Of a stretch of DNA of 64,000 nucleotides, positions 17,143-43,466 are shown in pieces. The stretch comes from Myxococcota bacterium (lineage in GTDB: Bacteria > Myxococcota > B64-G9). Location of the stretch: NCBI GenBank assembly GCA_022710975.1, contig JAKLGA010000001.1, positions 806,001 to 870,000 of the forward strand. Reading direction: 5' to 3'. Under the pieces are notes generated by a model. It made no database searches, was not told where the DNA came from, and saw nothing but the letters and a program-made list of their open reading frames with translations. A program made the translations under genes and the position numbers. Numbering within the stretch: the first letter of the stretch is position 1; each line of letters opens with the position of its first letter.

Positions 17143-17175
17143 GGGCTTTTTCCTTTCTGGGTTGAGGAGAGACGA

Positions 17176-20010: not shown

Positions 20011-20022
20011 GGCCGACCTCGG

Positions 20023-21093: not shown

Positions 21094-21104
21094 GGCTACT
21101 CCTT

Positions 21105-21665: not shown

Positions 21666-21669
21666 GGCT

Positions 21670-21765
21670 TCACCTCCCGGTGATCCAGCCAGCCAGCAGG
21701 ACGAAGGCCAACTTGCCTGCCAGGTGGAGCAGGCCGAGAAACAGGCGAACGAGCTTCTTCTTCAC
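21670..21765 (-). CDS. 31-residue putative membrane peptide
   Basis: GTG-started frame: MKKKLVRLFLGLLHLAGKLA then FVLLAGWITGR and stop. Three lysines precede a continuous hydrophobic helix, the classic topology of a tiny inner-membrane protein. A GAGGT ribosome site lies seven bases upstream, and the stop is five bases before the next gene's start. It is the second such ORF in the element (see 14451-14543). Confidence 0.45.
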   Translation of the reverse strand: MKKKLVRLFLGLLHLAGKLAFVLLAGWITGR

Positions 21766-21801
21766 TGATGACCTCGCTTTCTGAGATGGGTTGTGGTGGC
21801 T

Positions 21802-22614
21802 TCAGCCGGCCAGGCAGGGCCCGGCGTACTGGCACGAGCGGCACTGCCAGCCTTTGATGGGGTAGTACGCGCCCGCGTCGATGGCCTTGAGGACTCCGCA
21901 GGCGACGCGTAGGAAGTCGCGCTGGTCCTGCTCAGAGCGGGTCAGCCTGTGGATGGAGAGAGCCGGCGTCTTCTGCTTGAGCAGAATCTGGAGCTGGACG
22001 GTGGCGTCGCCGAGGCCCATCGACGGCGCGGCCAGCGTGTAGGCCGTGACCTGGTGATCGTTGGCCAGGCGGTCCTCGGCCCAGCGCTTCGCGGCCGTCT
22101 TGTGTTCGATTACGGCGTAACGGCCGTCTTCCTCCTGCGCGACGACGTCGAACGCGCCCACCAACTTCACGGGTGGGACCTCGCCGGTGTCGGGGTCGTG
22201 GATCTCGACGGAGAACGGCTCTTCGACGCCGACCACCCGGTAGGGACGAGGGGCGGCTTCGTGGAAGATCCTGAGGATTCCGAGGCCAGTCTCGAGCAGG
22301 CTCTCTTCGGTCTGGTCGTTGTCCAGCAGCACCGGCGGGGACTCCGAGAAGCTGCGCTTCAGGGCGGCACTGAACGCGGCCTGGATGGCTTCCAGGCTGG
22401 GCTCGGGCTTCCGGTCGCGGAGCGAGAGGTAGAACTGCGCCAGGGCCTCGTGGACCGCGCCACCGAAGGCCAGCGGACCGGGGCGATGGGTGGGCTTGAA
22501 CTGCAGGATGTAGCGGTAGCGGTAGGCGGCCGGGCAGGTCAGGTAGCTCGTCAAGGCCGAGGCGGAGACGTGCCGCTCGGCCCTGAGCAGTGCCAGGGCA
22601 GACGATGCGGTCAT
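21802..22614 (-). CDS. PD-(D/E)XK nuclease, RecB/Cas4-like
   Basis: 270 residues with the Cas4/RecB-exonuclease layout. An N-terminal Cys in SYLTCPAAYRYRYILQ and three C-terminal Cys in WQCRSCQYAGPCLAG form the expected iron-sulfur cluster. Nuclease motifs are GGAVHEAL (motif I), LVGAFDVV (Asp) and YAVIEHKTA (ExK). These enzymes resect DNA ends. It is adjacent to and downstream of the Rad52-like annealing gene, forming an exonuclease/annealase pair analogous to phage Red systems. It is separate from the cas4-cas1 fusion at 35.9 kb, so a role in spacer acquisition is not implied. Confidence 0.85.
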   Translation of the reverse strand: MTASSALALLRAERHVSASALTSYLTCPAAYRYRYILQFKPTHRPGPLAFGGAVHEALAQFYLSLRDRKPEPSLEAIQAAFSAALKRSFSESPPVLLDNDQTEESLLETGLGILRIFHEAAPRPYRVVGVEEPFSVEIHDPDTGEVPPVKLVGAFDVVAQEEDGRYAVIEHKTAAKRWAEDRLANDHQVTAYTLAAPSMGLGDATVQLQILLKQKTPALSIHRLTRSEQDQRDFLRVACGVLKAIDAGAYYPIKGWQCRSCQYAGPCLAG

Positions 22615-22639
22615 GGCTCGTTCTCCTTGTGGGTTGAGG

Positions 22640-23332
22640 TCAGACGGGGGCGCCGCCGAGCTCGTCGGAGAACTCGGAGATCAGCGACGAGGCGTCGGCG
22701 CGGGAGAGGTGCTCGGGCTGCTGCTTGAAGAGCTGGACCGCTCGCTCGCGGATATCGTCCGCGGTCATCTGGAGCTTGCGGCCGAGGCTCCAGAGAGCGC
22801 TCAACTGCTTTTGCGTCAGGCGCGCGCCGTTGGAGCCGGGGCTGGAGCTGTGGCTGGGGCTGGGGCTGGTCTGGGCGGCACGGGCGCGGCCGTTGCCGTT
22901 TCCGTTGCCACCGTTGCTGCCGTTTCCGCCGTTGCCTGAGGCCTTGGGCTGCTTCGACGTCGGGGCGGCGTCGCTGTACAGGTGGAGGCCGATGCCGAAC
23001 ATCGAGCACGCCTTCTTCAAGCTGTCAGTCGCGGCGGCCTTCAGATCGTCGGCCAGGGAGATGCGCTCGCCGGTCTCGGAGTGGACGGTGATCGAGCTGC
23101 CGCCGAACGCCGTCTTGACGACGCCAGCAGCGCTGAGCTTGCCGAGGACGACGACCTCGTTCTCGTGGATGGCGTGCTCCAGGACCTCGAAGCTCCACTC
23201 GCCGGCAAAGGCCTCATTGAGGCGGCGGACGTACTCGCTGCCCTCCGCATACGAAAGCACCTGGCCGAAGTTGCCCTTGCGGGTCTTCAGTACGGACGGG
23301 TCGAACGGCTTCTCGAGGATGGACATGTCCAT
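22640..23332 (-). CDS. Rad52/22-like single-strand annealing protein
   Basis: 230 residues. The N-terminal 130 match the Rad52/Rad22 DNA-binding fold as seen in phage annealing proteins: YAEGSEYVRRLNEAFAGEWS, VVVLGKLSAAGVVKTAFGG, and the helix LADDLKAAATDSLKKACSMFGIG. A Ser/Gly/Asn-rich linker (about 138-178) and a helical C-terminal segment (LTQKQLSALWSLGRKLQMTA) follow. ATG at 23332 is chosen because AAGGAGG lies seven bases upstream. It is the first gene of a minus-strand series annealase-nuclease-(tiny ORF)-unknown-clamp-zinc ribbon, suggesting homologous recombination during element replication or transfer. Confidence 0.85.
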   Translation of the reverse strand: MDMSILEKPFDPSVLKTRKGNFGQVLSYAEGSEYVRRLNEAFAGEWSFEVLEHAIHENEVVVLGKLSAAGVVKTAFGGSSITVHSETGERISLADDLKAAATDSLKKACSMFGIGLHLYSDAAPTSKQPKASGNGGNGSNGGNGNGNGRARAAQTSPSPSHSSSPGSNGARLTQKQLSALWSLGRKLQMTADDIRERAVQLFKQQPEHLSRADASSLISEFSDELGGAPV

Positions 23333-23599
23333 GGGCGGGCCTCCTTGCGAAAGGCGCACGGGTAGCGTGCGCGTAGGGTTCGGGGTCTGGTTTGGGGACA
23401 GGGGCTAAGGCGTTTGCGGCGAGGGCACGAACGACGAACAGGGCCTGTTGGAGGGGATGGTCGCTTCCATCTTCTTATACCCGAATTCGGTGCGGGATTT
23501 TGAAGCTCTAGCGGTTTACTCCTGCCACGCCGCCTCGGGGCCTTGTGTTATGGGTTCCAACGGGTGGATCATGAGACAGGCTCTCCAGGAGGGATGGGA
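23333..23599. promoter_or_regulatory. divergent intergenic region
   Basis: 267 bases separate the annealing-protein gene (minus) and a lipoprotein gene (plus), so promoters for both are expected. A moderately AT-rich patch lies near 23468-23520. No distinct operator, RNA or repeat was seen. Confidence 0.3.
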
Positions 23600-24340
23600 A
23601 TGAAGCTCGGGTACGCCATCCTCGGGATCTTCCTCACTGGCCTGGTCGCGGGCTGCGAGCGGGGCTCCACGGAATCGACTGCACCCGACGTGGCCGGCCA
23701 CGACCCCGCGCATCCACCCATCGACTGTCCGCTGGCCAAGGCGGGTGTTGATGCGAGTCACCTCCGCCCATTCGAGGACGTGGAGAAGTACATCGCGTTC
23801 CTGGAGCGGGCGGACCGCGCCGTGTGGCAGAAGCCCGACGAGGTGGTCGCGGCGCTCAAGCTCCAGGGGACTGAGACCGTTTTCGATCTCGGGGCCGGCT
23901 CCGGCTACTTCAGCTTCCGCCTGGCAAGGGCTCTGCCCAGCGGGAAGGTCATTGCCGCCGACACCGAGCCCGAGATGGTCCGCCACCTGCACCACAAGAT
24001 CCTCGGCGATGGCCTCTCCAACATGGAGGCTGCCCTGATCCAGCCCGGCGACCCGGGCATCCCCAAGGACGCTGATCTGGTGTTCGTCTGCGACGTGCTC
24101 CACCACGTCACGGATCGGTCGACCTGGCTCGCCAAGCTGACCTCCGAGATGAAGCCGGGCGCGCACCTGGTGCTTATCGAGTTCAAGGAGGGAGACCTGC
24201 CCGAGGGGCCTCCCGAGTCGGTGAAGATCACCCGGGCGCAGTTGGTGGAGCTGGTTACTCGGACCGGGCTGGCGCTCACCACCGAGCGCGTCGAGCTGCT
24301 CCCATATCAGACGTTCCTCGTCTTTCGGAAACCGGGCTGA
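23600..24340 (+). CDS. lipoprotein with class I SAM-dependent methyltransferase domain
   Basis: A lipoprotein signal (MKLGYAILGIFLTGLVAGC, lipid Cys19) is followed by about 45 flexible residues and then a Rossmann methyltransferase: motif I TVFDLGAGSGYFSFRLA, KVIAADTEPEMV, DLVFVCDVLHHVTDRS and HLVLIEFKEGDLP. ATG at 23600 has AGGAGG seven bases upstream. A methyltransferase anchored outside the cytoplasm is unusual because SAM is cytosolic, but such predicted lipoproteins recur in deltaproteobacteria. Substrate unknown. No operon partner. Confidence 0.8.
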   Translation: MKLGYAILGIFLTGLVAGCERGSTESTAPDVAGHDPAHPPIDCPLAKAGVDASHLRPFEDVEKYIAFLERADRAVWQKPDEVVAALKLQGTETVFDLGAGSGYFSFRLARALPSGKVIAADTEPEMVRHLHHKILGDGLSNMEAALIQPGDPGIPKDADLVFVCDVLHHVTDRSTWLAKLTSEMKPGAHLVLIEFKEGDLPEGPPESVKITRAQLVELVTRTGLALTTERVELLPYQTFLVFRKPG

Positions 24341-24483
24341 CGGCCAGCATTGTAGCTGGCTGTTGTTCGAAACCCAGGCCCTACGCTCCAGGCCTGAATC
24401 TACTGCACCGGACTTGAGGATGCGGACTGGGTCTCGCCAGCAGGGAGAACCTTGGATAGCGCCTGGCCCGCGCGGGGCCCACT

Positions 24484-24804
24484 CTAGGGAGCCAGTAGCC
24501 GCAGCGCCTGGATGACGGCCTTTCGTTTCTTCGCCGGCCACTTCTCAAGCAGCTCCTCGAGCTCCTGGGCGAGCTGGCCGGAACCGGATCCGTGACGGGA
24601 GTCGAGAAGGGCGCCAAGCCGCACATGCAGGGCTGTCGCAAGCCGATCCAGAGCCTCCAGCGAGAGCGTCTTCGCGCCGCGTTCGACCTGGGACAGGTAG
24701 GTCGTGTCCAGCTTCACCCGTTCGGCGAGCACGGCTTGGGTGAGGCCGAGCGCCTTGCGATGGCTTTGAATGCGGGCGCCGATTTCCTTGGAATCGATGG
24801 GCAT
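24484..24804 (-). CDS. XRE-family helix-turn-helix regulator
   Basis: 106 residues. Residues 8-62 carry a canonical Cro/C1 HTH: IGARIQSHRKALGLTQAVLA, then LDTTYLSQVERGAKTLSLEA and LDRLATALHV. The C-terminal part (LAQELEELLEKWPAKKRKAV) is a helical, possibly dimerising tail. GGAGGGA precedes the ATG. It is divergent from the DUF1232 gene at 24932; the 127 bases between probably hold its operator. Confidence 0.88.
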   Translation of the reverse strand: MPIDSKEIGARIQSHRKALGLTQAVLAERVKLDTTYLSQVERGAKTLSLEALDRLATALHVRLGALLDSRHGSGSGQLAQELEELLEKWPAKKRKAVIQALRLLAP

Positions 24805-24931
24805 TGGTTCCCTCCAGTACCGCGGAGGGTGGCAGCGGGGAAGGTGCTACGGGCACTGGTTGACGTAGTGCTAAAAGAACGGGTACCTTCTTTGTGAGTG
24901 AATCAAACCAATCGGGGAAGGGAGAATCCGC

Positions 24932-28732: not shown

Positions 28733-28954
28733 ATGGGACGCACGGGCCGCAAGGCCATGTTGAGGGTGGCCACCGAGAGGTGCGGAGAGCGGCAAGGCCA
28801 CAGGTGGGTACTCGGCTTCGACGGCCAGAGCGAGGTGGTCAAGCCCGAGAAGCTCCGGAAGAAGATGCACTGGGAGCATGCGGCGAACATGAGACGAATG
28901 AATGTGCCGAAAAGTCAGGGCACCCTTCCAAGGAAAGGAGAAAGCGATGACTGA
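28733..28954 (+). CDS. 73-residue basic protein overlapping cas7
   Basis: Reads MGRTGRKAMLRVATERCGER and ends GTLPRKGESDD. It is strongly basic, with a central WVLGFDGQSEVVKPEKLRKK stretch reminiscent of the C-terminal strand and helix of WYL-domain regulators, which often accompany CRISPR loci. A GGGGCGAG site precedes the ATG. Its stop overlaps the cas7 start region by eight bases, so translation could be coupled. A stop lies in frame 61 bases upstream, so it may be a remnant of a longer regulator. Tentative. Confidence 0.45.
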   Translation: MGRTGRKAMLRVATERCGERQGHRWVLGFDGQSEVVKPEKLRKKMHWEHAANMRRMNVPKSQGTLPRKGESDD

Positions 28955-30179
28955 GAAATTGACGCTCGACCAGCTCAGGGAAGCCGTGAACACGGCGGCG
29001 GCATTCCGCTGTCGACGGAGGCTCCAGCCAGCCGGAGGTGCAGGAGACAAAGTGTTCCCACCGACTTTCTCGGGTGCTGTCTACGCCGAGGAACAGAGGC
29101 GTGTGCCCGGACGAGAGCAGCCGGTGACCTGCGTGCTTCTGGACAGCGTCCAGAGCCAGGCCAACCGCATGGAGCTGGCGCTTCAGGATGCCATGGAAGC
29201 CAAAAGGCTACACATGCCTCTGTTGGTGGTTGACTTCTCAGATTTCGATCCGACGGGCGATCTCGATGCCGACGAGCAGCACGGCCGATTGGTCGACAAG
29301 GTCGGCAAGCTCACCAGCCTGCAACTCCCTCATCGGCTCGCCGACGCCATTCTCCGGGACAGCGAGCTCGACAAGGTTCCCTTCCGCCTTTCGGACAAAG
29401 GCAGGACCCTGGACGAGGCCAGCTTCGCCAACGCGACGCCCTTGTTCGAGCTTTGTCCCACGGCGCTGGTCTTTGGGATGTGGGACTCGACTGGCCCCAA
29501 GGGCAGCCTCGGTCCCAAGTTCGAGCGAGCAATGGTTTCTGAGATCGTCGGCATCGGGGCCGCGCTTGATACGGACCACATGAACCGCGGGGTACGCCGC
29601 GACCCACTGGAAATCAGGGCAAACATCGGCGTGATCAAGAACCCCGACAAGTCCTGGAAGGTAGCGGAGGCCGGCTCGAAGAAGAATGACAAACCGTCCG
29701 CGATCAACCACGGCAGCGTTCCATTCGCCAGGCCAAATGCGGGCGTGACCATCGAGTACGCCGAGCAGGTGACCACGCTGTCGCTCATCGGTTTGAGGCG
29801 TTACCGCTTCCCGCTGAAGGGCCAGGATGGGTTAATGAATGATGTCGATCAGGCCGCAAGGGTTGCGCTTGCCGCGCTGGGGCTGTGCGCCGCGACGCTG
29901 GCGTTCGAGAAGGGCATGGACCTCCGTTCCCGTTGCCTGCTGTGGCCCGAAGGCGTGATGATGTGGGAATTGCTTGAGAAGCCCGGTCAGGAGCCTCGCA
30001 GCTTCGTCCTCGACGGTGAGACGACCATCGACCTCCACAAGGCGGCGGTGAAGGCGGCGCGGGCGCATGGCCTCCCTTGCCCCGAGCAGGCACTTGTCCT
30101 CAAGCCGAATGCGGAGCTCGTCAAGCTCGTCCGCCTGAGCCAGCTCGAGTGGACCAAGGAAGATAAGGAAGGGAAGTGA
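28947..30179 (+). CDS. cas7: Cas7 backbone subunit, type I-G (Csb1/GSU0053 family)
   Basis: Forms the repeated backbone of the type I-G Cascade that coats the crRNA. The 410-residue protein matches the Csb1 family: CVLLDSVQSQANRMELAL near residue 60, LPHRLADAILRDSELD, FRLSDKGR and LVFGMWDSTGPKGSLGPKF. ATG at 28947 has AGGAG eight bases upstream. It is the first Cas gene; cas5-cas6 starts one base after its stop. Codon use is less GC-biased here than in the left flank, consistent with acquisition. Confidence 0.92.
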   Translation: MTEKLTLDQLREAVNTAAAFRCRRRLQPAGGAGDKVFPPTFSGAVYAEEQRRVPGREQPVTCVLLDSVQSQANRMELALQDAMEAKRLHMPLLVVDFSDFDPTGDLDADEQHGRLVDKVGKLTSLQLPHRLADAILRDSELDKVPFRLSDKGRTLDEASFANATPLFELCPTALVFGMWDSTGPKGSLGPKFERAMVSEIVGIGAALDTDHMNRGVRRDPLEIRANIGVIKNPDKSWKVAEAGSKKNDKPSAINHGSVPFARPNAGVTIEYAEQVTTLSLIGLRRYRFPLKGQDGLMNDVDQAARVALAALGLCAATLAFEKGMDLRSRCLLWPEGVMMWELLEKPGQEPRSFVLDGETTIDLHKAAVKAARAHGLPCPEQALVLKPNAELVKLVRLSQLEWTKEDKEGK

Positions 30180-30180
30180 G

Positions 30181-31746
30181 ATGCTCACCCTCGGCATCCG
30201 CTACTTGATGGGGTTCTCCGCGGCCGCCGAATTCTCCGATCCGACAAGCCCCGAGTGGCCTCCGCATCCCGGTCGCGTGTTCATGGCCATGGCTTCAGCT
30301 CACTTCCAGACCGGCGAGGAGCCCGCCGAAAGACGGGCGCTGGAGTGGCTCGAGTCGCTACCTTGCCCACCCCGCATCCATGCGCCCGAAGTATTTCGCC
30401 GCCTCCTGGTCACGCACTATGTCCCGGTCAATGACGAGCACAAATCCCATAAAGACAAGACTATCCCTCTATCGTTCCACGCCATCCCGCGACCAAGGCA
30501 GCCGCGCACATTTGCGCGGTGCTGGCTCGAACGTGAGAATGTTTTTCTCATTTGGCCAGATCAAGAACCGCCGCCAGAAATACATCAGTCCCTAACCCAA
30601 ATCTGCAGCAAGGTGACCCGGATCGGCCATTCGTCCTCCCTGGTTCATATGTGGTGTGCAACTCCCGCAGAACTCCGACCACCGAACTGGCTTCCGGACG
30701 AGGAGCGCGCAACGGTTCGCCTGAGGCTGCCGACCGAGGGCACGCTCTTGGAGCTCGAGCGTCGCCACGCAACCGAGCGACGCGAACGATATGGGCAACT
30801 CCGGTGCGCGCTGGCATACGCTTCAACCGCCAAGGAGAAGAGATCCGCGAAAAAGTGTATGGAGGAGGAGTTTTCCGATGGCGAGCCACTCTTGCTTCGT
30901 CCCTTTCTCGCCATGGACTGCGGCTATGCCCGCGCCGAGACCGCTGCGGCTATCTCTGTGAGGGGCACGGTGTTCAGCCCCCACCTGTTGACCTACACCC
31001 TGGAGGCCTCCCAGAACCCCTCGGGCTACAAGTACCTCGATCTGCCATGCGCGCCGCAGGTCATCCAGCGTTGGCGTGAGGCTCTCTGCGCAGCCAGTAA
31101 CGATCTGGGTGCGGAGGTTCGCCTCATCTTGAGCGGCCACGCTCTTGATGGCAAGCCGCTCGATCGTCCACACTTGGCTTTTCTGCCTCTGGCATTCGTG
31201 GGCCACGAGCATGCCGATGGCAGGCTGGTCGGCATGGGGTTGGTGCTCCCAGTGGGCCTCCCTCGAGACGTCCGGAGAGGTGTGCTCGTGGCGGTCGGCC
31301 GGGTCCGGGAGCTGAGGTTGGGTCGACTCGGTGTGTGGCAGGTCGGGCCGGTGCTCGAGGACCGCCAGTTGCTCAACCTCCAGACCGACGTTTGGACGGG
31401 GGATGCTGCGGGTGCCCGCCGCTGGGCCAGCGTGACACCGGTGGCATTCGATCGCCACCCGAAGTCGAGAGACCGTTCAATTCGTCTGACAGAGGCCGAG
31501 GCGATGCTCCGTGAGGCCAGCAAGAGGATCGGTTTGCCGGTGCCCCTTGAGGTGATCGTCACGCTGGTCTCGGCCCATCCAGGCTCACCGCTGTCTTGTG
31601 ATTTCCCACCACTCACCCGAAAGGATGGCGGGCAGCGACAGCATGCCCACGCCATTCTGGTGTTCAACGAACCGGTCCGAGGCCCCGTGCTCTTGGGCGC
31701 TGGTCGATACAAGGGATATGGGGTTTTCCGTCCGCTCGAAGGATGA
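30181..31746 (+). CDS. csb2: Cas5-Cas6 fusion, type I-G (Csb2/GSU0054 family)
   Basis: 521 residues. The N-terminal Cas5-like part starts MLTLGIRYLMGFSAAAEFSD and includes PEWPPHPGRVFMAMASAHF, a hallmark of Csb2. The C-terminal Cas6-like part has SAHPGSPLSCDFPPL and ends with a Gly-rich loop HAILVFNEPVRGPVLLGAGR then YKGYGVFRPL. In type I-G the fused Cas6 domain cuts pre-crRNA and Cas5 caps the 5' handle. The ATG follows the cas7 stop by one base. Parts of the gene (for example 30400-30650) are AT-richer than neighbours. Confidence 0.9.
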   Translation: MLTLGIRYLMGFSAAAEFSDPTSPEWPPHPGRVFMAMASAHFQTGEEPAERRALEWLESLPCPPRIHAPEVFRRLLVTHYVPVNDEHKSHKDKTIPLSFHAIPRPRQPRTFARCWLERENVFLIWPDQEPPPEIHQSLTQICSKVTRIGHSSSLVHMWCATPAELRPPNWLPDEERATVRLRLPTEGTLLELERRHATERRERYGQLRCALAYASTAKEKRSAKKCMEEEFSDGEPLLLRPFLAMDCGYARAETAAAISVRGTVFSPHLLTYTLEASQNPSGYKYLDLPCAPQVIQRWREALCAASNDLGAEVRLILSGHALDGKPLDRPHLAFLPLAFVGHEHADGRLVGMGLVLPVGLPRDVRRGVLVAVGRVRELRLGRLGVWQVGPVLEDRQLLNLQTDVWTGDAAGARRWASVTPVAFDRHPKSRDRSIRLTEAEAMLREASKRIGLPVPLEVIVTLVSAHPGSPLSCDFPPLTRKDGGQRQHAHAILVFNEPVRGPVLLGAGRYKGYGVFRPLEG

Positions 31747-31767
31747 GCCTTTGAGGAGGGATTCGAC

Positions 31768-34719
31768 GTGAACGGATTGCCTTCCTTCGCCGAGGTGTTC
31801 GAGGCCCTGTGGGGCATTGTGCCTTTTCCCTGGCAGGAGATGCTCGCCGCCCGTCTCTCAGGCCGTGGCTGGCCGCGGGCGATCGATCTTCCGACCGCCG
31901 CCGGCAAGACCGCCTGCATCGACGCTGCAGTCTTTGCCCTCGCCGCCCAGGTCGGGCTTCTCCCCCAGGATCGCACGGCACCACGGCGGATCTGGTTCGT
32001 GGTCGATCGACGCATCGTGGTCGACGAGGCCCATCGCCGGGCGGAGGCGATCGCCGAGGCGCTCGCCTCCGCGCGCGAGGGCCCTCTGGCTTGCATCGCG
32101 GCGCGGTTACGCGAGCTCAGCGGCACCGAACGACCGCTGGCCACCGCCAGGCTGCGCGGCGGGATGCTGCTCGACGACGGCTGGGCGCGGATCCCGAGCC
32201 AGCCCGCGGTCATCGCCACCACCGTGGACCAGCTTGGCTCCAGGCTGCTCTTCCGCGCCTATGGCCACGGTCATCGAGTGGCCTCCGTGTTCGCCGGCCT
32301 GTCGGCCAACGACAGCCTCATCCTCCTGGACGAGGCCCACTGCTCCGTGCCGTTCCTGCAGACGCTGCAGACGATCGAAGCGCTTCGCAGCCAACGCTGG
32401 GCCGAGACGCCGATCGCCACGCCCTTCGCCTTCGCCGTACTGAGCGCCACCCCACCCCACGGGATCCCCGCCGAGGGGATCTTCCCGGGCGCTGCGCGGG
32501 AACCCGCGCTGGCGAATGCGACGCTTCAGCAACGATTGAAGGCCCGAAAGCCAGCGAAGCTGGTCCCCGTCGAGGGATGTCGGAAGGGCAGTGACCCGCT
32601 GGTCGGCAGGGCGATCCAGATTGCAACGGCCTGGGTCAAGGCGGAGGGGCGCAGAAGAGTTGGCCTGATCGTCAACCGGGTGGCCACGGCCCGAGCGCTA
32701 ACTGAAGGCTTGCGGAGATCTCTGGAAAGCAGCGCTGATGTGCTCCTCCTCACAGGGCGCATGCGGCCCGTCGACAGGGACCTCCTCCTTCGACGCTGGC
32801 TCCCGTACCTGCGCGCGTCGAAGCCCGAAGAGCCCGCGAGGCCCATGGTGGTGGTGGCCACCCAGTGCCTCGAGGTAGGCGCGGACTTCAGCTTCGATGC
32901 CCTGGTCTCGGAGTGCGCCAGCCTGGACAGCCTACGCCAGCGTTTCGGCCGTTTGAACCGCATGGGGCTCGCGGGCGACGCGCCGGGCGTCATCCTCGCC
33001 CGAACGGACCAGGTCGGTCCCGAAGCCACAGAGCCAGGTGCCGAAGATCCCATCTACGGATCGGCGCTACGTGACACCTGGAACTTGCTCAATTCCTGGT
33101 CCGGCGGAAAAGGCGCACCCGACGCCGCGGGCGTGGTAGATTTTGGGGTGGAGTCCATCGAGCGGCGCCTGCGAGAGGTCGCCGACCTTGAGGATCTGGA
33201 CCGTTGCCTCGCGCCCCATCCGGATGCACCGCTGCTTCTCCCAGCCCACCTGGACCTGCTGTGCCAGACAAGCGGTGACGTCCAACCCGTTCCCGACATC
33301 GGGCCTTTCCTGCACGGCAAGGACCGAGGCTCACCAGAAGTGCGCGTGGTCTGGCGGACGGACCTCGACCCCGAGCGCCCCGAGGACTGGATCGACATCG
33401 TGGTCCGCTGTCCGCCCGTGAGCGGCGAGATGCTGTCGCTCCCACTCTACCTGCTGAGGGCTCGGCTTCAAGCCCAGGAAGTGACCGACCGCGGAGGCGA
33501 CGTGGAAGGTGAAGTCGTCCGCGAGGAGATCGAGGGGCGAATCCGGCCCGTGCTCGTCTATCGCGGCCGGGACCACTCCCGGTGGGTCGACGACTCCGCG
33601 GACATCTACCCTGAGAGCGTGGTCGTCATGCCCGCAGCCTACGGCCCGCTGGACCTTGGCGAGACCATCGGTGAACAAGCGTTGGGGACGGAAGGACTGG
33701 ATGTGTGGGAGACCGCCCGGGCCGCCACGGGGAAAGGGATCACCCTGCGGCTCCAAAGAGACGTGCTCGCGCCCTGGGCAGCATGGCAGCCCCTGGCCGA
33801 GGTGCTCGGGCTGGTCGAGAGCCCTACCTTCGAGCGGGAAGACCTCATGCAGGCCCTCGACCGAGTGCTGGCGACAGACGCCGCCGATGCGGAGGCCCAG
33901 CAGCCCCCCGCCTGGTGGCTGGAATTGCTCAAGAGGGCAAGGGCAGGGCGCCTGGTCGCGCACCCTAGTGGAGGCGCCGTCCTGATCGCCAGGCCATCCG
34001 CAGATGCGCGCTCCGAGGAGGAAATGGACCTCTTCGCGGACGACGACGACTGGGCCTCGGCCGGCGGTGTCGAGGTAGGGCTGGATGCGCACACCGAGGC
34101 CGTCGTGCGGGCCGTTGAGAAGGTGGCAGCCCGCTGCCTGCCCGCGGAGCTTGTACTGCCGCTGGTCAAGGCGGCGCGCTATCATGACCTTGGCAAGCTC
34201 GATGAGAGGTTCCAGCTCCTTCTCCGCCGGGGAGACACCCCGCTCTTGCGCGCACCGATCGCCAAGTCCAACAATATGCCCGACTCGGCATCCATGAGGC
34301 GCAGGCTTCGGGAGGAGAGCGGCTTGCCCGCAGGTTTTCGCCACGAGATGCTGTCGGCCCAGATTGCGGAGTCGATGCTCAAGGCGGATGAGGCGGTGGA
34401 TCTCATCGTGCACCTCATCGCCAGCCACCACGGCTTCGCGCGCCCCTTTGCACCGTTCTGCCGAGACGACGCGCCGCCGCCCATTTCCAGTGAGTTTCTT
34501 GGAGAATCCATCGCACTTTCCGAAGAGAAGCGCCGGTCTCGACCCATGCACCGCCTGGACTCCAACGTGCCCGAGCGCTTCTGGCTCCTCACCCGGCGCT
34601 TCGGCTGGTGGGGGCTCGCCTATCTCGAGGCGCTCCACAGGCTCGGCGACTGGTACGGGAGCCAGCACGTCATACGACCCGAGGCCCTTCCACGCAACAA
34701 CAAGGGGGACCCGACATGA
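31768..34719 (+). CDS. cas3: Cas3 helicase-nuclease with C-terminal HD domain (type I-G)
   Basis: 983 residues. The helicase domain comes first: Walker A PTAAGKT at 42-48, DEAH at 188-191, VLSATPP, and the second RecA domain with VVATQCLEVGADFSFDALVS and RQRFGRLNRMG. The HD nuclease is at the C-terminus: His806-Asp807 in RYHDLGK, then SHHGFARPF. Helicase first and HD last is characteristic of type I-G Cas3. The start is GTG with GAGGAGGG upstream. It unwinds and degrades target DNA after Cascade binding. The stop overlaps the next gene (ATGA). Confidence 0.95.
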   Translation: MNGLPSFAEVFEALWGIVPFPWQEMLAARLSGRGWPRAIDLPTAAGKTACIDAAVFALAAQVGLLPQDRTAPRRIWFVVDRRIVVDEAHRRAEAIAEALASAREGPLACIAARLRELSGTERPLATARLRGGMLLDDGWARIPSQPAVIATTVDQLGSRLLFRAYGHGHRVASVFAGLSANDSLILLDEAHCSVPFLQTLQTIEALRSQRWAETPIATPFAFAVLSATPPHGIPAEGIFPGAAREPALANATLQQRLKARKPAKLVPVEGCRKGSDPLVGRAIQIATAWVKAEGRRRVGLIVNRVATARALTEGLRRSLESSADVLLLTGRMRPVDRDLLLRRWLPYLRASKPEEPARPMVVVATQCLEVGADFSFDALVSECASLDSLRQRFGRLNRMGLAGDAPGVILARTDQVGPEATEPGAEDPIYGSALRDTWNLLNSWSGGKGAPDAAGVVDFGVESIERRLREVADLEDLDRCLAPHPDAPLLLPAHLDLLCQTSGDVQPVPDIGPFLHGKDRGSPEVRVVWRTDLDPERPEDWIDIVVRCPPVSGEMLSLPLYLLRARLQAQEVTDRGGDVEGEVVREEIEGRIRPVLVYRGRDHSRWVDDSADIYPESVVVMPAAYGPLDLGETIGEQALGTEGLDVWETARAATGKGITLRLQRDVLAPWAAWQPLAEVLGLVESPTFEREDLMQALDRVLATDAADAEAQQPPAWWLELLKRARAGRLVAHPSGGAVLIARPSADARSEEEMDLFADDDDWASAGGVEVGLDAHTEAVVRAVEKVAARCLPAELVLPLVKAARYHDLGKLDERFQLLLRRGDTPLLRAPIAKSNNMPDSASMRRRLREESGLPAGFRHEMLSAQIAESMLKADEAVDLIVHLIASHHGFARPFAPFCRDDAPPPISSEFLGESIALSEEKRRSRPMHRLDSNVPERFWLLTRRFGWWGLAYLEALHRLGDWYGSQHVIRPEALPRNNKGDPT

Positions 34720-35858
34720 AGGCACCCGGGGTGGAAATCGAGCTCAACGGGCTCGACGGCCTGAACCCACTAGGATACTTGGCCGCGCTCGGCGCGCTCT
34801 GTGTTGCCCATCGAACCGGAGAGCGTGAAGCGCGCCTGAAATGGACACGACAGGCGACCTGGCGGCCGGTCTTGACCGGGCTCGCTTTGACCGAACGAGG
34901 TGAGCTGTGCCGCCAGATGGCCGCAGTCTTGCGCGGGAAGGACGTGCCCGAGGAAGCCGACAAGATCCGCGCTGCGGCCAAGAGTGTGTTCGAGGTGGCT
35001 AAGACGTGCGTCAAGGACAAACGCGTTGAGATCCAAAAACGGAAGCTCGACAAGCAGGAGAGGGCCACCGCCCTCGAACAGGAGCTCGCGCCGCTCGAGG
35101 CGGAACGAGAGATCAGGCGCGAAGAGTTCCTGGCAGCGCTTCGAGTCGCCGTCCCCAGCCCGGAGCTCGCGCTAGGCCAACGGATCGACTGCACGAGCGA
35201 CGAATACCGTAGCCACGCCGAGGACAGCTTCCGCGATGCGGGGTCACGGAATCGCGACGCCATCGACCTCTTGGCCGCATTTGCTAACGAATCCGTCACC
35301 GACCGGGGAAAGGTGGTCCCTACGCCCTTCTGCTTCATTACCGGTTCGGGCCACCAATTCTTCCTTGAGACTGTTAGGCAGCTCATGGCCCTCGTCACGC
35401 CGGAGCGGATCGCCGAAGCTCTGTTCGAAGCCTGGCGTTACAGGGATGAGAAGCTGTCCATGCGGTGGGATCCTATGGACAACCGACAGTACGCCTTGCT
35501 CGACCGCGACCCGACGGCGGCGGACAACCGAAGCCAGACGGTCTGGATGGCCAACCTTCTCGCCTACCGGTCGCTCTGCCTGTTCCCTTTGGTGATGCAG
35601 CGCGGCGCTCTGGCCGCGACAGGTTGGAGCCTGAGCCGCGAGGATCGACCCTGGCAATGGACCTGGCCGATCTGGGAGTTCCCCATCGGTATCGACTGCG
35701 TCCGATCGCTCTTGCAACTGAGAGAGCTTCAAGAGGCTCGACCGGATCATGCGCGGCTACGCGCCCTCGGTGTTTCGGCGGTGTTTCGCGCTTCCCGGAT
35801 CAAGGTCGGACAGGGCGCCAACTTCAAGTTGAACTTCACCCCCGCACGCGGGGTGTAG
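34716..35858 (+). CDS. Cas8-type large subunit, type I-G (Csb3/Csx17-like)
   Basis: 380 residues from the ATG that overlaps the cas3 stop by four bases. The N-terminus VEIELNGLDGLNPLGYLAAL resembles the opening of Csx17/Csb3 proteins. A charged coiled segment lies at about 95-150, and a conserved-looking FITGSGHQFFLETVRQLM region follows. In type I-G this position is occupied by the large subunit (Cas8g) that recognises the PAM. It is shorter than typical Csx17, so Csb3 is the closer name. Assignment relies on motif resemblance plus strict gene order. Confidence 0.75.
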   Translation: MKAPGVEIELNGLDGLNPLGYLAALGALCVAHRTGEREARLKWTRQATWRPVLTGLALTERGELCRQMAAVLRGKDVPEEADKIRAAAKSVFEVAKTCVKDKRVEIQKRKLDKQERATALEQELAPLEAEREIRREEFLAALRVAVPSPELALGQRIDCTSDEYRSHAEDSFRDAGSRNRDAIDLLAAFANESVTDRGKVVPTPFCFITGSGHQFFLETVRQLMALVTPERIAEALFEAWRYRDEKLSMRWDPMDNRQYALLDRDPTAADNRSQTVWMANLLAYRSLCLFPLVMQRGALAATGWSLSREDRPWQWTWPIWEFPIGIDCVRSLLQLRELQEARPDHARLRALGVSAVFRASRIKVGQGANFKLNFTPARGV

Positions 35859-35872
35859 TAGGAAAGGATGCC

Positions 35873-37591
35873 GTGATACCGCGAGTGGACTACGGCGACT
35901 CCGTCCCCGAGCTTCTCCCGGCCCGGATGCTCAACGAGTACGCCTACTGCCCCAGGCTCGCGTATCTTATGTGGGTGGAGAGCGAGTTCGATCACAACGC
36001 CTTCACCCTCGACGGCCGGCGGGTCCACGCGCGGGTGGACTCGGGCCCACAGGCGCTCCCGGAGGCCGACGAGGCCCAGGAGGGTGAGGAGACCGAGGAC
36101 GCGGAACCGGCCGAGAGCATCCGCGCCCGATCGGTCATGCTGTCCGCCCCGACCGAGGGGCTGATCGCCAAGATCGATCTGGTCGAGCTCGAGGGCCAGG
36201 TCGCGACCCCCGTGGACTACAAGCGCTCGAAGAAGCCGGACACCTCCCAGGGCGCCTGGGAGCCGGAGCGCGTGCAGCTCTGCGCCCAGGGCCTCATCCT
36301 GCGCGAGAACGGTTACCAGTCCGATCGGGGGGTCCTCTACTTCGCCGGCTCGAAGGAGCGCGTGGAGATCGATTTCACAGCCGGCCTAATCGAGCGCACC
36401 CGGGAGCTGGTCCTCGAGTTCCGCCGGGTGGCCGCCATACCCGAGCGGCCCGCGCCGCTCCACGAAAGCCCGAAGTGCGGCGGCTGCTCGCTGGTCGCCA
36501 TCTGCCTGCCCGAGGAGACCGCGCGCCTCCAGGCCGAGGGCGAGCCCACCGAGGCGGAGATGCGCCGCTTGCTGCCTGCGCGGGACGACGCCCTGCCGCT
36601 CTACGTCCAGACCCACGGCATGCAGGTCGGCAAGCAGGGCGAGGTCCTGGTGGTGAAGGAGAAGGGCAGCGTGAGGGCCGAGGCCAAGCTCGTGACCACC
36701 TCCCAGGTGTGCCTGTTCGGCAACATCGGCATCACGGCCCAGGCCCTCCACGAGTGCTGCGACCGGGGCATCCCCGTCTGCCACTTCCAGGCGAGCGGCT
36801 GGTTCCACGGCATCACGACCGGGCTCGGCCCGCGGAACGCCATGGCCAGGCGCATCCAGTTCCGGGCCGCGGACAATCCGGCGATCTGCCTGGCGGTGGC
36901 CCGGCGCATCGCCAGCGCCAAGATCCAGAACCAGCGCACTATGCTCAGGCGCAACCACCCGGAGCCTCTGCTCCTCGATCTGCGGGCCCTCGACGAGCAG
37001 GCCGAGGCCGCGTCGCGGGCCGAGTCACTCGAGTCGCTCCTCGGCCACGAGGGGAGCGCGGCCCGCATCTACTTCGGCGCCTTCCCGGGGCTGCTCAAGC
37101 CCAAGGTGGAGGCGGGCTTCGAGTTCGACTTCGAGGGCCGGAACCGCAGACCGCCCCGCGATCCGGTCAACGCCATGCTCTCCTTCGCCTACGCCATGCT
37201 GGCCAAGGATTGCACCACGACGCTCCTCGGGGTGGGTCTCGACCCCCACGTCGGCTTCTACCACCAGCCGCGCTTCGGCCGGCCCGCGTTGGCGCTCGAT
37301 CTCATGGAGGAGTTCCGGCCGCTGGTGGCCGACTCGGTGGTGCTCACCTTGGTGAACAACGGCATCGTGGCGCCGGACGGATTCCTCAAGGTCGGGCGCT
37401 CGGCGGCCATGAAGCCCAAGACACAGAAGGTGCTCATCGAGGCCTACGAGCGGCGCATGGACCAGCTCGTGACCCACCCGGTGTTCGGCTACCGCGTGAG
37501 TTACAGGCGCACCTTGGAGGTCCAGGCGCGCTTGCTCACTCGCCACCTGGCCGGCGAGATCCCCAACTGGCCGCCGTTCCTGCCGAGGTAG
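35873..37591 (+). CDS. cas4-cas1: Cas4-Cas1 fusion protein, spacer acquisition
   Basis: 572 residues. The Cas4 half (about 1-215) has Cys26 in EYAYCPRL and the cluster Cys202, Cys205, Cys211, plus nuclease motifs GLIAKIDLVE and TPVDYKRSKKP. The Cas1 half (about 230-572) starts LPLYVQTHGMQVGKQGEVLV and carries VNAMLSFAYAML, the GLDPHVGFYHQPRFGRPALA stretch and DLMEEFRPLVADSV, holding the Glu/His/Asp metal site. Fusion of Cas4 and Cas1 is typical of type I-G, as in Geobacter. GTG at 35873 has GGAAAGGA upstream. Cas4 trims prespacers and sets PAM orientation; Cas1 integrates them. Confidence 0.95.
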   Translation: MIPRVDYGDSVPELLPARMLNEYAYCPRLAYLMWVESEFDHNAFTLDGRRVHARVDSGPQALPEADEAQEGEETEDAEPAESIRARSVMLSAPTEGLIAKIDLVELEGQVATPVDYKRSKKPDTSQGAWEPERVQLCAQGLILRENGYQSDRGVLYFAGSKERVEIDFTAGLIERTRELVLEFRRVAAIPERPAPLHESPKCGGCSLVAICLPEETARLQAEGEPTEAEMRRLLPARDDALPLYVQTHGMQVGKQGEVLVVKEKGSVRAEAKLVTTSQVCLFGNIGITAQALHECCDRGIPVCHFQASGWFHGITTGLGPRNAMARRIQFRAADNPAICLAVARRIASAKIQNQRTMLRRNHPEPLLLDLRALDEQAEAASRAESLESLLGHEGSAARIYFGAFPGLLKPKVEAGFEFDFEGRNRRPPRDPVNAMLSFAYAMLAKDCTTTLLGVGLDPHVGFYHQPRFGRPALALDLMEEFRPLVADSVVLTLVNNGIVAPDGFLKVGRSAAMKPKTQKVLIEAYERRMDQLVTHPVFGYRVSYRRTLEVQARLLTRHLAGEIPNWPPFLPR

Positions 37592-37594
37592 GCC

Positions 37595-37885
37595 ATGCGG
37601 AAGGCGTACGTGGTCTCCTACGACATCTGCGACCAGAAGCGCTGGCGCCGGGTGTACCGGACCATGCGCGGCTTCGGGGACCACGTGCAGTACTCGGTGT
37701 TCGTCTGCGAGCTGGCAGACGCCGAGCGGGTGCTGCTGATCACCGCGCTCGACAAAGTGATCCACCACGGCGAGGATCAGGTCCTGATCATCGACCTTGG
37801 GCCGGCCGAGGGCCGGGGAGGCGACTGCATCGAGGCCCTTGGCAAGGCATTCACTTGCCCGGAGCGGCACGCGATCGTGGTGTAG
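37595..37885 (+). CDS. cas2: Cas2, spacer acquisition
   Basis: 96 residues. The family opening RKAYVVSYDICDQKRWRRVY includes the conserved Asp after beta-1 and the RRVYRTMRGFG helix; QYSVFVCEL and ALDKVIHHGEDQVLIIDLG follow. Cas2 dimers form the core of the Cas1-Cas2 integrase. It starts three bases after the cas4-cas1 stop and is the last gene before the leader and array. Confidence 0.96.
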   Translation: MRKAYVVSYDICDQKRWRRVYRTMRGFGDHVQYSVFVCELADAERVLLITALDKVIHHGEDQVLIIDLGPAEGRGGDCIEALGKAFTCPERHAIVV

Positions 37886-38111
37886 ATGTCGATCTGCCCG
37901 GGCCGGTCGCTCTTTGACAACCGGAGCAAGCGTTTCGAGCGCGAAGGTGGCGAGGAAAACCCGGGACGCGCTCGAAGGAAGGAACCGGTTGTCCTGAAAG
38001 GAAATTCAGGTGGCGTCCGAGAGGTCGTCAACGCCATGTGTGCCTGGTTGTCAGTACCGCTCGAAAGCGGTGTTGCAGCCCAGGGAAACAACGAGGAGAA
38101 TAGCGACGGCT
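37886..38111 (+). promoter_or_regulatory. CRISPR leader
   Basis: 226 non-coding bases between cas2 and the first repeat. A TTGACA hexamer at 37914-37919 is a candidate -35 element, without an obvious -10 at 17 bases. Leader position on this side is supported because the opposite end of the array carries the degenerate repeat. New spacers should be added at 38112. Confidence 0.75.
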
Positions 38112-39376
38112 CGATCCGCTCCCTCCGGGGAGCGGCCCCATTGAAGCCCGACGCCGGGGAACCAGCCGGCCGCCTTCAGCGACCGATCCGCTCCCTCCGG
38201 GGAGCGGCCCCATTGAAGCGACATGTACGGGTCCATGGCTCAAGAGCAGTGGGACCGATCCGCTCCCTCCGGGGAGCGGCCCCATTGAAGCCTCAGGTCA
38301 GCTCAGCAGCCGTCACGCGCTCAGTTCGATCCGCTCCCTCCGGGGAGCGGCCCCATTGAAGCATCCTATCCTTGGGTGAGGTGCTGTGTGGCTGGCTCTT
38401 CGATCCGCTCCCTCCGGGGAGCGGCCCCATTGAAGCCGTTCTTGGCCTTCACCACCTCGTACCCCGTAGGCGTCGATCCGCTCCCTCCGGGGAGCGGCCC
38501 CATTGAAGCACCGTGGGCCCTGGCGGGGCGCACGTCGAGTACGAGGCGATCCGCTCCCTCCGGGGAGCGGCCCCATTGAAGCTGGATCGAGGACCCGCAG
38601 CCTGGAGACGACCACGCGCCCGATCCGCTCCCTCCGGGGAGCGGCCCCATTGAAGCTCGGCACGGTCACCCATGTCCGTTCAGCCCCTTCCTGCGATCCG
38701 CTCCCTCCGGGGAGCGGCCCCATTGAAGCGGGTGCGCCTCCAGGTGAAGCGCCTCGGGCGCTCGCGGCGATCCGCTCCCTCCGGGGAGCGGCCCCATTGA
38801 AGCTCGATTGGACCGTGTCGAATAGACGTTCGACGATGAACGATCCGCTCCCTCCGGGGAGCGGCCCCATTGAAGCGTCGGGCTCTGGTTCAGGGTCTTC
38901 ACGTCGGACAGCGATCCGCTCCCTCCGGGGAGCGGCCCCATTGAAGCGAGTTCGGGAAGCCAGTTCGGCGCACGCTTCGCAACCGATCCGCTCCCTCCGG
39001 GGAGCGGCCCCATTGAAGCGACGTGTAGTGCGACGAGAGAGCACCCATCACAGCCCGATCCGCTCCCTCCGGGGAGCGGCCCCATTGAAGCGTGTCCTGG
39101 TCGTCGTCGGCCTTGGCCCACGGAGCCCGATCCGCTCCCTCCGGGGAGCGGCCCCATTGAAGCATGGCCCTGGTAACCAAGTCGGCGTGGTAAATCTTCG
39201 ATCCGCTCCCTCCGGGGAGCGGCCCCATTGAAGCGGTGTGGTGGTGCCGTGGGCGTGCGTGGATGAGCGGCGATCCGCTCCCTCCGGGGAGCGGCCCCAT
39301 TGAAGCTGGCGGCCGACGAGCGTCTCGTTGCGCCAGATCTGCGGCGATCCGCTCCCTCCGGGGAGCGGCCCCATTG
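38112..39376 (+). CRISPR. type I-G CRISPR array: 18 repeats, 17 spacers
   Basis: The 36-base repeat begins CGATCCGCTCCC and ends CCCCATTGAAGC. Seventeen copies are identical; the 18th (39345-39376) matches only through CATTG and then diverges. Repeat starts: 38112, 38184, 38256, 38327, 38401, 38474, 38547, 38621, 38694, 38768, 38841, 38912, 38984, 39056, 39128, 39199, 39271, 39345. Spacers are 35-38 bases and all different. Each repeat can form a perfect 8-bp stem CCGCTCCC/GGGAGCGG with a TCCG tetraloop. No spacer matches the rest of the window by eye. Confidence 0.98.
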
Positions 39377-39437
39377 GTGACCGGTCCGGATGGGATGTCC
39401 GATGCGTTTTGCTGCCGACCCGAACAAGGAGGTCGCG

Positions 39438-40955
39438 ATGGTTCCCTTGCTGATCGCTTCAGCTGCCACAGCGCTTGTCCTCGCAGTGGTTCTCGTCTGG
39501 GTGGTTCGGAGCTACCTCCGGGAGAGGGCTCGCGTGAAGGCGGTGGAGACCCGCTTCAAGGGCATCCTCGACGTGGACGCCGAGATCGCAGCGCGCCGCG
39601 CCGCCCAGCAGCAGGCTGAGAAGGAGTTCGTCGGCAAGCTGGAGGCCTACCGCAACGAGGCCAACAACCAGGTCGCCGCCGGCCGTGCTGCTCTGGCGAA
39701 GGCCGAACAAGAACACGTGAAGACCCTCGAGGCCATCCAGGCGAGCAAGCTGCAGGTGGAGAAGGACATCGAGAACCTACGGGGCGACTACAAGGAGAAG
39801 CACGGCGTATTAGACCGGCTGAAGGCGGAGCTGGCCCTGCTCGAAGAAGCCGAGGAATCCGCCTCCTTCGGCATCTACAAGCCTGCCTACACCTTCGATG
39901 CGCCCGAGAGGTACAAGGAGGAGCTCGAACGCATCCGCGACAGGCAGAAGGCGCTCATCAAGGAAGGCCGGGTCGCGACCTGTGACACCCAGTGGCAGGT
40001 CGGCGGCAGCCTGGCGGCCGGCAAGCGCATGACCGCCCACTACACCAAGCTGATGACCCGGGCTTTCAACGGGGAGTGCGATGCGCTCATCTCCGGCGTG
40101 CGCTGGAACAACGTCGAGCGCATCGAGGAGCGTATCCGGTCTTCCTTGGCGGCCATCAACAAGCTCGGGAAGGACCACCAGATCACCATCACGGATGCGT
40201 ACCTGGAGCTGAAGCTGGCCGAGATGCGCCTGGTGTACGAGTACGCCGAGAAGGTGCAGCAAGCCAAGGAGGAGCAGCGCCAGATCCAGGCTCAGATCCG
40301 CGAGGAAGAGAAGGCTCAACGGGAGATCGAGCGTGCCCTGAAGGAGGCTGAAGACGAGGAGATGAGGTACGCCAAGGCCCTCGAGCAGGCCCGCGCCACC
40401 GTCGAGAGCGCCAAGGGGCAGCAGCTTGAGAAGCTGAACGATAAGATCGCCCACCTGGAGCAACAGCTCCAGGATGCGCAGCAGAACAAGGCGAGAGCCA
40501 TCTCCCAGGCCCAGCTCACCAAGTCGGGGCACGTCTACGTGATCTCCAACGTGGGTTCCTTCGGCGAGAACGTCTACAAGATCGGGATGACCCGGCGGCT
40601 GGAGCCCATGGACCGCGTGCGAGAGCTGGGCGACGCCTCCGTGCCGTTCGAGTTCGACGTCCACGCAATCATCTACTCGGAGAACGCCCCTGCCCTCGAG
40701 AACGCCTTGCAGAAGGCCTTCCACGAGAGCCGGCTCAATCTGGTTAACCTGCGCAAGGAGTTCTTCAGGGTGACGCTCCCGGAAATCGAGAAGGTCGCCA
40801 AGCAGCAAATGGCGGACATCGAGTTCACCCAGATCGCCGAGGCCCGCGAGTTCCGTGAGTCCATGGCCATGCGCGAGCGAAGGAGCATCCCGCCCGCCAT
40901 CGACCAGCCACAGCAAGCGCTGCACTCGGCGGATCTTCCCGAGAGCCTCGACTAG
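39438..40955 (+). CDS. DUF4041 protein with C-terminal GIY-YIG (T5orf172/MUG113) nuclease domain
   Basis: 505 residues from ATG at 39438, with AAGGAGG upstream. An N-terminal transmembrane helix (VPLLIASAATALVLAVVLVW) and long coiled coil (about 25-140, and again 280-365) enclose a DUF4041-like region (SFGIYKPAYTFDAPERYKEE, NGECDALISGVRW). The C-terminal domain starts GHVYVISNVGSFGENVYKIG, the GIY-YIG core, followed by MTRRLEPMDRVRELGDAS. Similar proteins occur in phages and near defence genes. It directly follows the array's old end. Nuclease activity against incoming DNA is plausible but inferred. Confidence 0.8.
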   Translation: MVPLLIASAATALVLAVVLVWVVRSYLRERARVKAVETRFKGILDVDAEIAARRAAQQQAEKEFVGKLEAYRNEANNQVAAGRAALAKAEQEHVKTLEAIQASKLQVEKDIENLRGDYKEKHGVLDRLKAELALLEEAEESASFGIYKPAYTFDAPERYKEELERIRDRQKALIKEGRVATCDTQWQVGGSLAAGKRMTAHYTKLMTRAFNGECDALISGVRWNNVERIEERIRSSLAAINKLGKDHQITITDAYLELKLAEMRLVYEYAEKVQQAKEEQRQIQAQIREEEKAQREIERALKEAEDEEMRYAKALEQARATVESAKGQQLEKLNDKIAHLEQQLQDAQQNKARAISQAQLTKSGHVYVISNVGSFGENVYKIGMTRRLEPMDRVRELGDASVPFEFDVHAIIYSENAPALENALQKAFHESRLNLVNLRKEFFRVTLPEIEKVAKQQMADIEFTQIAEAREFRESMAMRERRSIPPAIDQPQQALHSADLPESLD

Positions 40956-42507: not shown

Positions 42508-42650
42508 CCATCCGGGAGGCGGCAACCCATTCCACCCAAGTGTGCAAGCAGTTCGTGGAGAACGAGGGGTTCAAGCGCTACGTGACCGACATGGTGCAGG
42601 AACTCACCAGGGACTGAGCGGGCGTGCCGGCCGGTTGGAGGTGCTCCGCG

Positions 42651-43466
42651 ATGACGATTCCGTCCTTCCCCGCGGCCCAGGTCGAGCAGCTCGCCCGATG
42701 CCTGGCGCAGGCGAAGTCGCACTCGCAGCTCACCGACCTGTTCGCTGAGCTTGGGATGGACGCCCCCGGCCCGAGCCAGGGCGCCAAGTGGTTAAGGATT
42801 CGTGAGGCGCTGGCAGCGCGACAGAAACGGGACGGGGTTGGCAACAATGTTGGCACCTTCGTCCAGACCGTCCTGTCACCCGTCAACTTCGTCAAGGCCA
42901 GCGAGGGCTACTACGAGAGGCTGAGGGCCGAGGTGAACTTGATTCTCGCTTTCTGCGGCCTCCATGTCGACGAGGCGGGGAAGCTCTGCCCTGTGCCGCT
43001 GGCCAGAACGCTCGACGAGGCAGCGCGGCGAGCGAGCGAGCTCCGGGCCAAGCTGGTCCAGCGAGCGGTGCACCCTGAGGTCCTGTCCTTCTGCAGGCCG
43101 GAGCTGCTCGACGGGAACTACTTCCACGCGGTCCTCGAAGCCAGCAAGAGCGTGGCCGACAAGGTCCGGAACAAGACCGGGCTGCCATGTGACGGCGCCG
43201 AACTCTTCCAGCGAGCGTTCGGCGGCAAGGCGCCGCTGCTCGCCATCAACACCCTGACGACCGACACCGAGAAGTCCGAGCAGGCGGGTTTCGCCAACCT
43301 CTTGGTTGGCCTCTTCGGAACCTTCAGAAATCCCACGGCTCACGCGCCGAAGGTGCACTGGCCGATGTCGGAGCAGGATGCCCTCGACCTGCTGTCGCTC
43401 GTGTCCTACGTCCACCGCAGGCTCGACGGCGCGGTGAGCACCAACCCCACGCTGGTGGGCACTTGA
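42651..43466 (+). CDS. TIGR02391-family protein (Ymh-like)
   Basis: 271 residues from ATG at 42651 (GGAGG upstream). The C-terminal 130 residues fit the TIGR02391/Ymh pattern: HPEVLSFCRPELLDGNYFHA, VLEASKSVADKVRNKTGL, DGAELFQRAF, INTLTTDTEKSEQAGF and GTFRNPTAH. The RNPxAH-type box recalls HEPN-like RNases, though a catalytic RxxxxH is not clearly present. The family is frequent in defence islands and restriction loci. It is the last of four + strand genes after the CRISPR array. Confidence 0.75.
   Translation: MTIPSFPAAQVEQLARCLAQAKSHSQLTDLFAELGMDAPGPSQGAKWLRIREALAARQKRDGVGNNVGTFVQTVLSPVNFVKASEGYYERLRAEVNLILAFCGLHVDEAGKLCPVPLARTLDEAARRASELRAKLVQRAVHPEVLSFCRPELLDGNYFHAVLEASKSVADKVRNKTGLPCDGAELFQRAFGGKAPLLAINTLTTDTEKSEQAGFANLLVGLFGTFRNPTAHAPKVHWPMSEQDALDLLSLVSYVHRRLDGAVSTNPTLVGT

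What the first reader, a model, noticed from the sequence alone, without database searches (positions are those of the whole stretch)
28733..39376. Full type I-G CRISPR-Cas as cargo of the mobile element
All effector and adaptation genes plus a 17-spacer array lie well inside the element, so immunity would move with it. Its spacers may serve competition between elements. The array reads outward from cas2, and the terminal repeat is degenerate, fixing its polarity.
Basis: partly seen in the sequence, partly recalled or inferred. Interest (0 to 1): 0.65.

Follow-up and report, generated by a model that had tools for sequence, protein, structure and literature searches.

The report
Type I-G CRISPR-Cas inside tRNA-Asp element
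A complete and ordinary type I-G CRISPR-Cas system sits, beside other anti-phage genes, inside a 41.8-kb DNA element inserted at a tRNA gene, so this immune system looks like carried cargo, but its targets could not be found and there is no evidence that it fights other elements.

Summary
A complete, intact type I-G locus (cas7-cas5/6-cas3-cas8g-cas4/1-cas2, 28902-37885) is followed by 18 repeats and 17 spacers (38112-39381), read away from cas2. It lies inside a 41,754-bp element bounded by a 22-bp repeat of the tRNA-Asp 3' end (6455-6476, 48209-48230), next to an intact tyrosine integrase. That repeat occurs nowhere else in the genome. The cas locus is not fixed in relatives: none of 8 family genomes has I-G Cas4/1, and the nearest Cas4/1 is about 54% identical. 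Other elements with this integrase family have the same kind of tRNA-end repeats; some carry other defence genes (IetS, a cytosine methyltransferase), none a cas locus. A 10.4-kb block of the element recurs at 88% identity elsewhere in the same genome without cas. The cargo reading is therefore well supported. The competition reading is not: no spacer matched phages, plasmids, own genome, phylum genomes or sibling elements above chance, and 6 tested spacers had no IMG/VR match. No second element with this locus was found, so movement with the element is inferred from one copy, and the empty site could not be shown. CRISPR-Cas on integrative elements is already documented; this is a new member of a known kind.

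The parts
6400..6475 (+). tRNA-Asp (gtc), integration target
   Evidence: ARAGORN
6455..6476 (+). left attachment repeat (22 bp, tRNA-Asp 3' end)
   Evidence: exact repeat
48209..48230 (+). right attachment repeat (22 bp)
6482..7624 (-). tyrosine integrase, R-H-R-Y motifs visible
   Evidence: Pfam PF00589 E 3e-35
7624..8034 (-). HTH_17 protein, excisionase/regulator-like, paired with the integrase in many related elements
8649..9161 (-). excisionase/regulator-like protein
   Evidence: phrog_66 E 2e-5 (weak)
9299..11320 (-). Prim-Pol / AAA_25 primase-helicase
14459..24867 (.). 10.4-kb block repeated at 88% nt on contig C24 of the same genome: VWA, MoxR ATPase, metallophosphatase, DUF6744, DnaN-like clamp, PD-(D/E)XK nuclease, Rad52-like protein, methyltransferase, HTH
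28902..30179 (+). cas7 (csb1)
   Evidence: PF09617 E 3e-51; TIGR02570
30181..31746 (+). cas5-cas6 (csb2)
   Evidence: TIGR02165 E 1.5e-80
31768..34719 (+). cas3g, C-terminal HD domain
   Evidence: TIGR02621 E 2e-200; motifs
34716..35858 (+). cas8g (cas8u-like; NCBI 'Cas3-extension family'); ATG overlaps the cas3 stop
   Evidence: NF049934 E 1.3e-69; PDLC01514 Cas8g; start
35873..37591 (+). cas4/cas1 fusion (likely GTG start)
   Evidence: NF049935 E 5e-224; PDB 7mi4 Cas4/1 E 7e-168
37595..37885 (+). cas2
   Evidence: PF09827 E 2e-17; PDLC01756 Cas2g
37886..38111 (+). presumed leader
   Evidence: position between cas2 and first repeat; inferred
38112..39381 (+). CRISPR array, 18 repeats (36 nt), 17 spacers (35-38 nt), degenerate last repeat
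39390..40955 (+). PD-Lambda-1 (DUF4041 / T5orf172) defence gene
   Evidence: PDLC03976 E 6e-172
42624..43466 (+). PD-Lambda-3 B-like (Hypoth_Ymh) gene
   Evidence: PDLC03987 E 2e-82

Best explanation
This is an integrative element that inserts at the 3' end of tRNA-Asp through its tyrosine integrase, copies the tRNA end on insertion, and carries a defence cluster: a complete type I-G CRISPR-Cas system, PD-Lambda-1 and a PD-Lambda-3-B-like gene. The CRISPR-Cas part should work as other I-G systems do: Csb2 cuts the pre-crRNA at the repeat hairpin, Cas7/Cas8g/Cas3 bind and degrade matching DNA, and Cas4/1-Cas2 add PAM-selected spacers at the cas2-proximal end. Shown here: gene content, intact frames, array, attachment repeats, absence from close relatives, other defence cargo in sibling elements. 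Inferred: activity, excision, transfer, and what the spacers target.
For: Complete I-G gene set and single matching array. Repeat hairpin folds better than shuffles (z -2.6). 22-bp tRNA-end repeat unique in the genome. The integrase family, often with the HTH partner, sits beside tRNA-Gly, Leu, Asp, Ser and Glu genes and tmRNA in other genomes. Five of those elements show 23-38-bp tRNA-end repeats 6-24 kb away, and two of four scanned carry known or candidate defence genes. Left-flank synteny up to tRNA-Asp is kept in six family genomes, whose DNA beyond it differs; G005 has a related integrase at the same tRNA-Asp. No I-G Cas4/1 in 8 family genomes. The 10.4-kb block recurs on C24 without cas or integrase.
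Against: Only one element with this cas locus is known, so co-movement is not observed. The right flank has no clear family counterpart (one protein tested), so an empty site could not be shown. No conjugation, packaging or structural gene was recognised, so the means of transfer is unknown, and the element may be immobile now. The G+C content of the cas region (0.62-0.69) is close to that of the left flank, giving no compositional sign of recent arrival.
Confidence: 0.82

Rival explanations
1. The element uses the CRISPR-Cas as a weapon against rival elements: its spacers are drawn mainly from competing integrative elements or plasmids.
For: CRISPR arrays on ICEs/IMEs of ESKAPE species target prophages (61%) and other ICEs/IMEs (38%) (PMC9841420). 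Related integrases use the same tRNA-Asp in other genomes, so competition for the site is plausible.
Against: No spacer match above chance to the sister block on C24, the sibling elements, 193 phylum genomes, plasmids or phages. Six spacers tested gave no IMG/VR match.
Confidence: 0.12
2. The cas locus is an old lineage-specific chromosomal locus around which the element boundaries only appear by chance, or the island is a decayed, immobile accretion.
For: The region beyond the right repeat also looks variable in the family, so the whole stretch downstream of tRNA-Asp may be a general hotspot. The element is larger (41.8 kb) than the five siblings measured (6-24 kb) and may be composite.
Against: Unique 22-bp repeat and intact integrase in the expected place. 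No I-G Cas4/1 in 8 family genomes.
Confidence: 0.12
3. The island is the remnant of a prophage or phage satellite that happens to carry CRISPR-Cas (this overlaps with the best explanation: it concerns only the kind of element).
For: Prim-Pol, DnaN-like clamp, exonuclease and Rad52-like annealing genes resemble phage replication-recombination modules (PHROG and Pfam hits).
Against: No terminase, capsid, portal or tail family among the proteins scanned.
Confidence: 0.2

Closest known systems
Type I-G CRISPR-Cas of myxobacteria (csb1-csb2-cas3-cas8u1 with Cas4/1-Cas2; PMC11237760)
   Same: Gene set and order of the effector module, Cas4/1 fusion, 36-bp repeat ending in TTGAAGC, array beside cas.
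   Different: Here the locus lies inside a tRNA-Asp element; its Cas4/1 is at most about 54% identical to other loci of the phylum.
Thioalkalivibrio sulfidiphilus type I-G effector (PMC9638904)
   Same: Cas7, Csb2, Cas3 and Cas8g composition.
   Different: Cas7 and Cas8g found no solved chain by phmmer, so they are diverged from anything solved.
Cas4/1 fusion structure 7mi4
   Same: Full-length match, E 7e-168.
   Different: Only sequence divergence.
CRISPR-Cas on ICEs/IMEs (ESKAPE survey, PMC9841420)
   Same: CRISPR-Cas as cargo of an integrative element.
   Different: Different hosts; there spacer targets were found, here none was; no conjugation genes recognised here.
Sibling tRNA-targeting elements of the same phylum (G051, G064, G080, G089, G100)
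   Same: Related integrase (HTH partner in some), tRNA-end direct repeats; defence genes in two.
   Different: 6-24 kb, no cas locus.

Membership tests
Type I-G CRISPR-Cas | Csb1 (Cas7) and Csb2 (Cas5-Cas6) present | tested here: met
Type I-G CRISPR-Cas | Cas3 of the I-G family with helicase first and HD last | tested here: met
   TIGR02621 over cut-off; HD at residue 806
Type I-G CRISPR-Cas | Cas8g (Cas8u/Csx17) large subunit | tested here: met
   PDLC01514 Cas8g E 1e-74; NF049934 E 1e-69
Type I-G CRISPR-Cas | Cas4/1 fusion and Cas2 | tested here: met
   NF049935, 745 bits against a cut-off of 560
Type I-G CRISPR-Cas | G-type repeat, 36 bp, tail TTGAAGC | tested here: met
   PMC11237760
Type I-G CRISPR-Cas | Interference at targets with the right PAM | not testable with these tools
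   no protospacer found, so no PAM could be derived
tRNA-targeting integrative element | Intact tyrosine integrase next to a tRNA gene | tested here: met
tRNA-targeting integrative element | Direct repeat of the tRNA 3' end at the far boundary | tested here: met
   22 bp
tRNA-targeting integrative element | Empty site in relatives | tested here: inconclusive
   left flank conserved, DNA beyond the tRNA differs in the relatives and the right-flank protein tested has no clear family counterpart
Integrative and conjugative element | Relaxase and type IV secretion genes | tested here: not met
   none among the proteins scanned with Pfam and PHROGs; small unknown ORFs not excluded
Prophage | Terminase, capsid, portal or tail genes | tested here: not met

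The most novel reading that the evidence does not exclude
The element is a non-conjugative, non-phage integrative element with its own DNA-replication and recombination module (Prim-Pol, clamp, exonuclease, Rad52) that spreads type I-G immunity between bacteria of this phylum and uses it against elements competing for the same tRNA-Asp site.
Probability: 0.06. Interest if true: 0.6.

Novelty: new member of a known kind. Interest (0 to 1): 0.3.

Why it matters
It is a clear case of a complete adaptive immune system lying within the bounds of an integrative element together with other defence genes. It belongs to an integrase family that inserts at many tRNA genes in this phylum and, in some cases, brings different defence cargo, which would help explain the patchy distribution of type I-G systems there (20 of 195 genomes over the Cas4/1 cut-off). 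It does not change how I-G is thought to work.

Tried and rejected
Spacers against phages and plasmids (best E 0.8 and 3, partial matches, chance), own genome (only the array), 193 phylum genomes (best E about 0.002 per genome, which over 193 genomes is chance), C24 and C2 contigs and sibling elements (no better than reversed-spacer controls where these were run). Spacers of the second array (contig C2) against the element: chance level. IMG/VR exact-seed scans for six spacers: none. The search for related loci with the clamp in viral contigs: none; with the primase: only distant, mostly helicase-domain matches; with Cas4/1 in genome contigs: one, a Nevskiales genome at 49%. Cas4/1 tree: the window pairs with G018 at 94/87 support but over long branches, so it gives no donor. 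Tried to reconstruct the empty site from family genomes: right flank not found there.

Full report
What is there. The window is G000:C1:806001-870000 of a 7.1-Mb genome. Six cas genes read on the + strand: cas7/csb1 28902-30179, cas5-6/csb2 30181-31746, cas3 31768-34719, cas8g 34716-35858, cas4/1 35873-37591 and cas2 37595-37885 (starts of cas8g and cas4/1 chosen from overlap and ribosome-binding context). Catalytic motifs are visible and frames are open. The array (18 repeats, 17 spacers) follows 226 bp after cas2 and ends in a repeat whose last bases differ. The repeat has the 36-bp form with the -TTGAAGC tail of myxobacterial G-type arrays (PMC11237760), which fixes the direction of reading independently of the degenerate end. 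No other copy of the repeat lies in the genome.

The element. ARAGORN finds tRNA-Val and tRNA-Asp at 6307-6475. A 22-bp exact copy of the tRNA-Asp 3' end lies at 48209-48230; for 200 random 60-bp pieces of the window the longest exact repeat was 17 bp, and the genome search shows no third copy. The integrase ORF ends 6 bp beyond the left copy. Inside are an HTH protein, a Prim-Pol primase-helicase, a block with VWA, MoxR, metallophosphatase, DnaN-like clamp, PD-(D/E)XK nuclease and Rad52-like genes, the cas locus, PD-Lambda-1 and a PD-Lambda-3-B-like gene. No conjugation or virion gene was recognised.

Comparison with relatives. The family is thinly sampled (8 other genomes, 8 genera). None has I-G Cas4/1. 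Synteny left of tRNA-Asp is kept in six of them, and DNA beyond the tRNA differs; in G005 a related integrase lies at the same tRNA-Asp, where the contig ends. In the phylum, 20 of 195 genomes have I-G Cas4/1 over the family cut-off, all at most about 54% identical to this one. The same gene order occurs in G074. The integrase family is common (83 of 195 genomes at E below 1e-40) and sits beside tRNA-Gly, Leu, Asp, Ser and Glu genes and tmRNA. Five such elements show 23-38-bp tRNA-end repeats at 6-24 kb. None of the stretches read carries cas together with this integrase; of four elements scanned in part, one carries IetS and a cytosine methyltransferase and one carries candidate PDC-S54 and an HNH nuclease. 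Within the same genome, block 14459-24867 recurs on contig C24 at 88% nucleotide identity, without cas, PD-Lambda genes or this integrase in the 80 kb read. The element is therefore modular, and the cas locus is one module of it.

Spacers. No match above chance in phages, plasmids, own genome, 193 phylum genomes, sibling elements or the C24 block; six spacers tested by seed pattern in IMG/VR gave nothing. This absence is weak evidence, since phages of this group are poorly sampled, but it leaves the competition idea without support. The host has a second, larger array on contig C2 whose spacers do not match the element either.

Verdict. Observation confirmed; cargo reading well supported by anatomy and comparison; competition reading unsupported. 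CRISPR-Cas on integrative elements is documented (PMC9841420), and I-G is common in myxobacteria (PMC11237760).

Noticed in passing
window 14459-24867 and G000:C24:7912-18682 (L167): A 10.4-kb block (VWA, MoxR, metallophosphatase, DUF6744, DnaN-like clamp, PD-(D/E)XK, Rad52-like, methyltransferase, HTH) occurs twice in the genome at 88% nucleotide identity in different surroundings; its clamp has no close relative in the other phylum genomes searched. Function as a unit unknown.
   Followed up: partly
L031 13296-20000 and L170 1-1720 (G000:C2): Second CRISPR locus of the genome: about 87 repeats ending in TTGAAAC beside cas1 and cas2, with some duplicated spacers (identical 114-bp copies at 16982 and 17351).
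   Followed up: partly
L124 (G080:C1:4925001-4945000): Two tRNA-Leu-end repeats at 5.9 and 12.9 kb from the tRNA suggest two elements inserted in tandem.
   Followed up: no
L089-L097: Diverged Cas4/1-like matches in nine phylum genomes (all genus g65) each read through a single TGA in the search, so Cas4 and Cas1 are probably separate adjacent genes there rather than a fusion, or the gene is interrupted.
   Followed up: no
window 25479-27554 and 45388-47922: Two FGE-sulfatase-domain proteins (one with a MopE-type metal-binding motif, one with PEGA domains) inside the element, not obviously related to defence.
   Followed up: no
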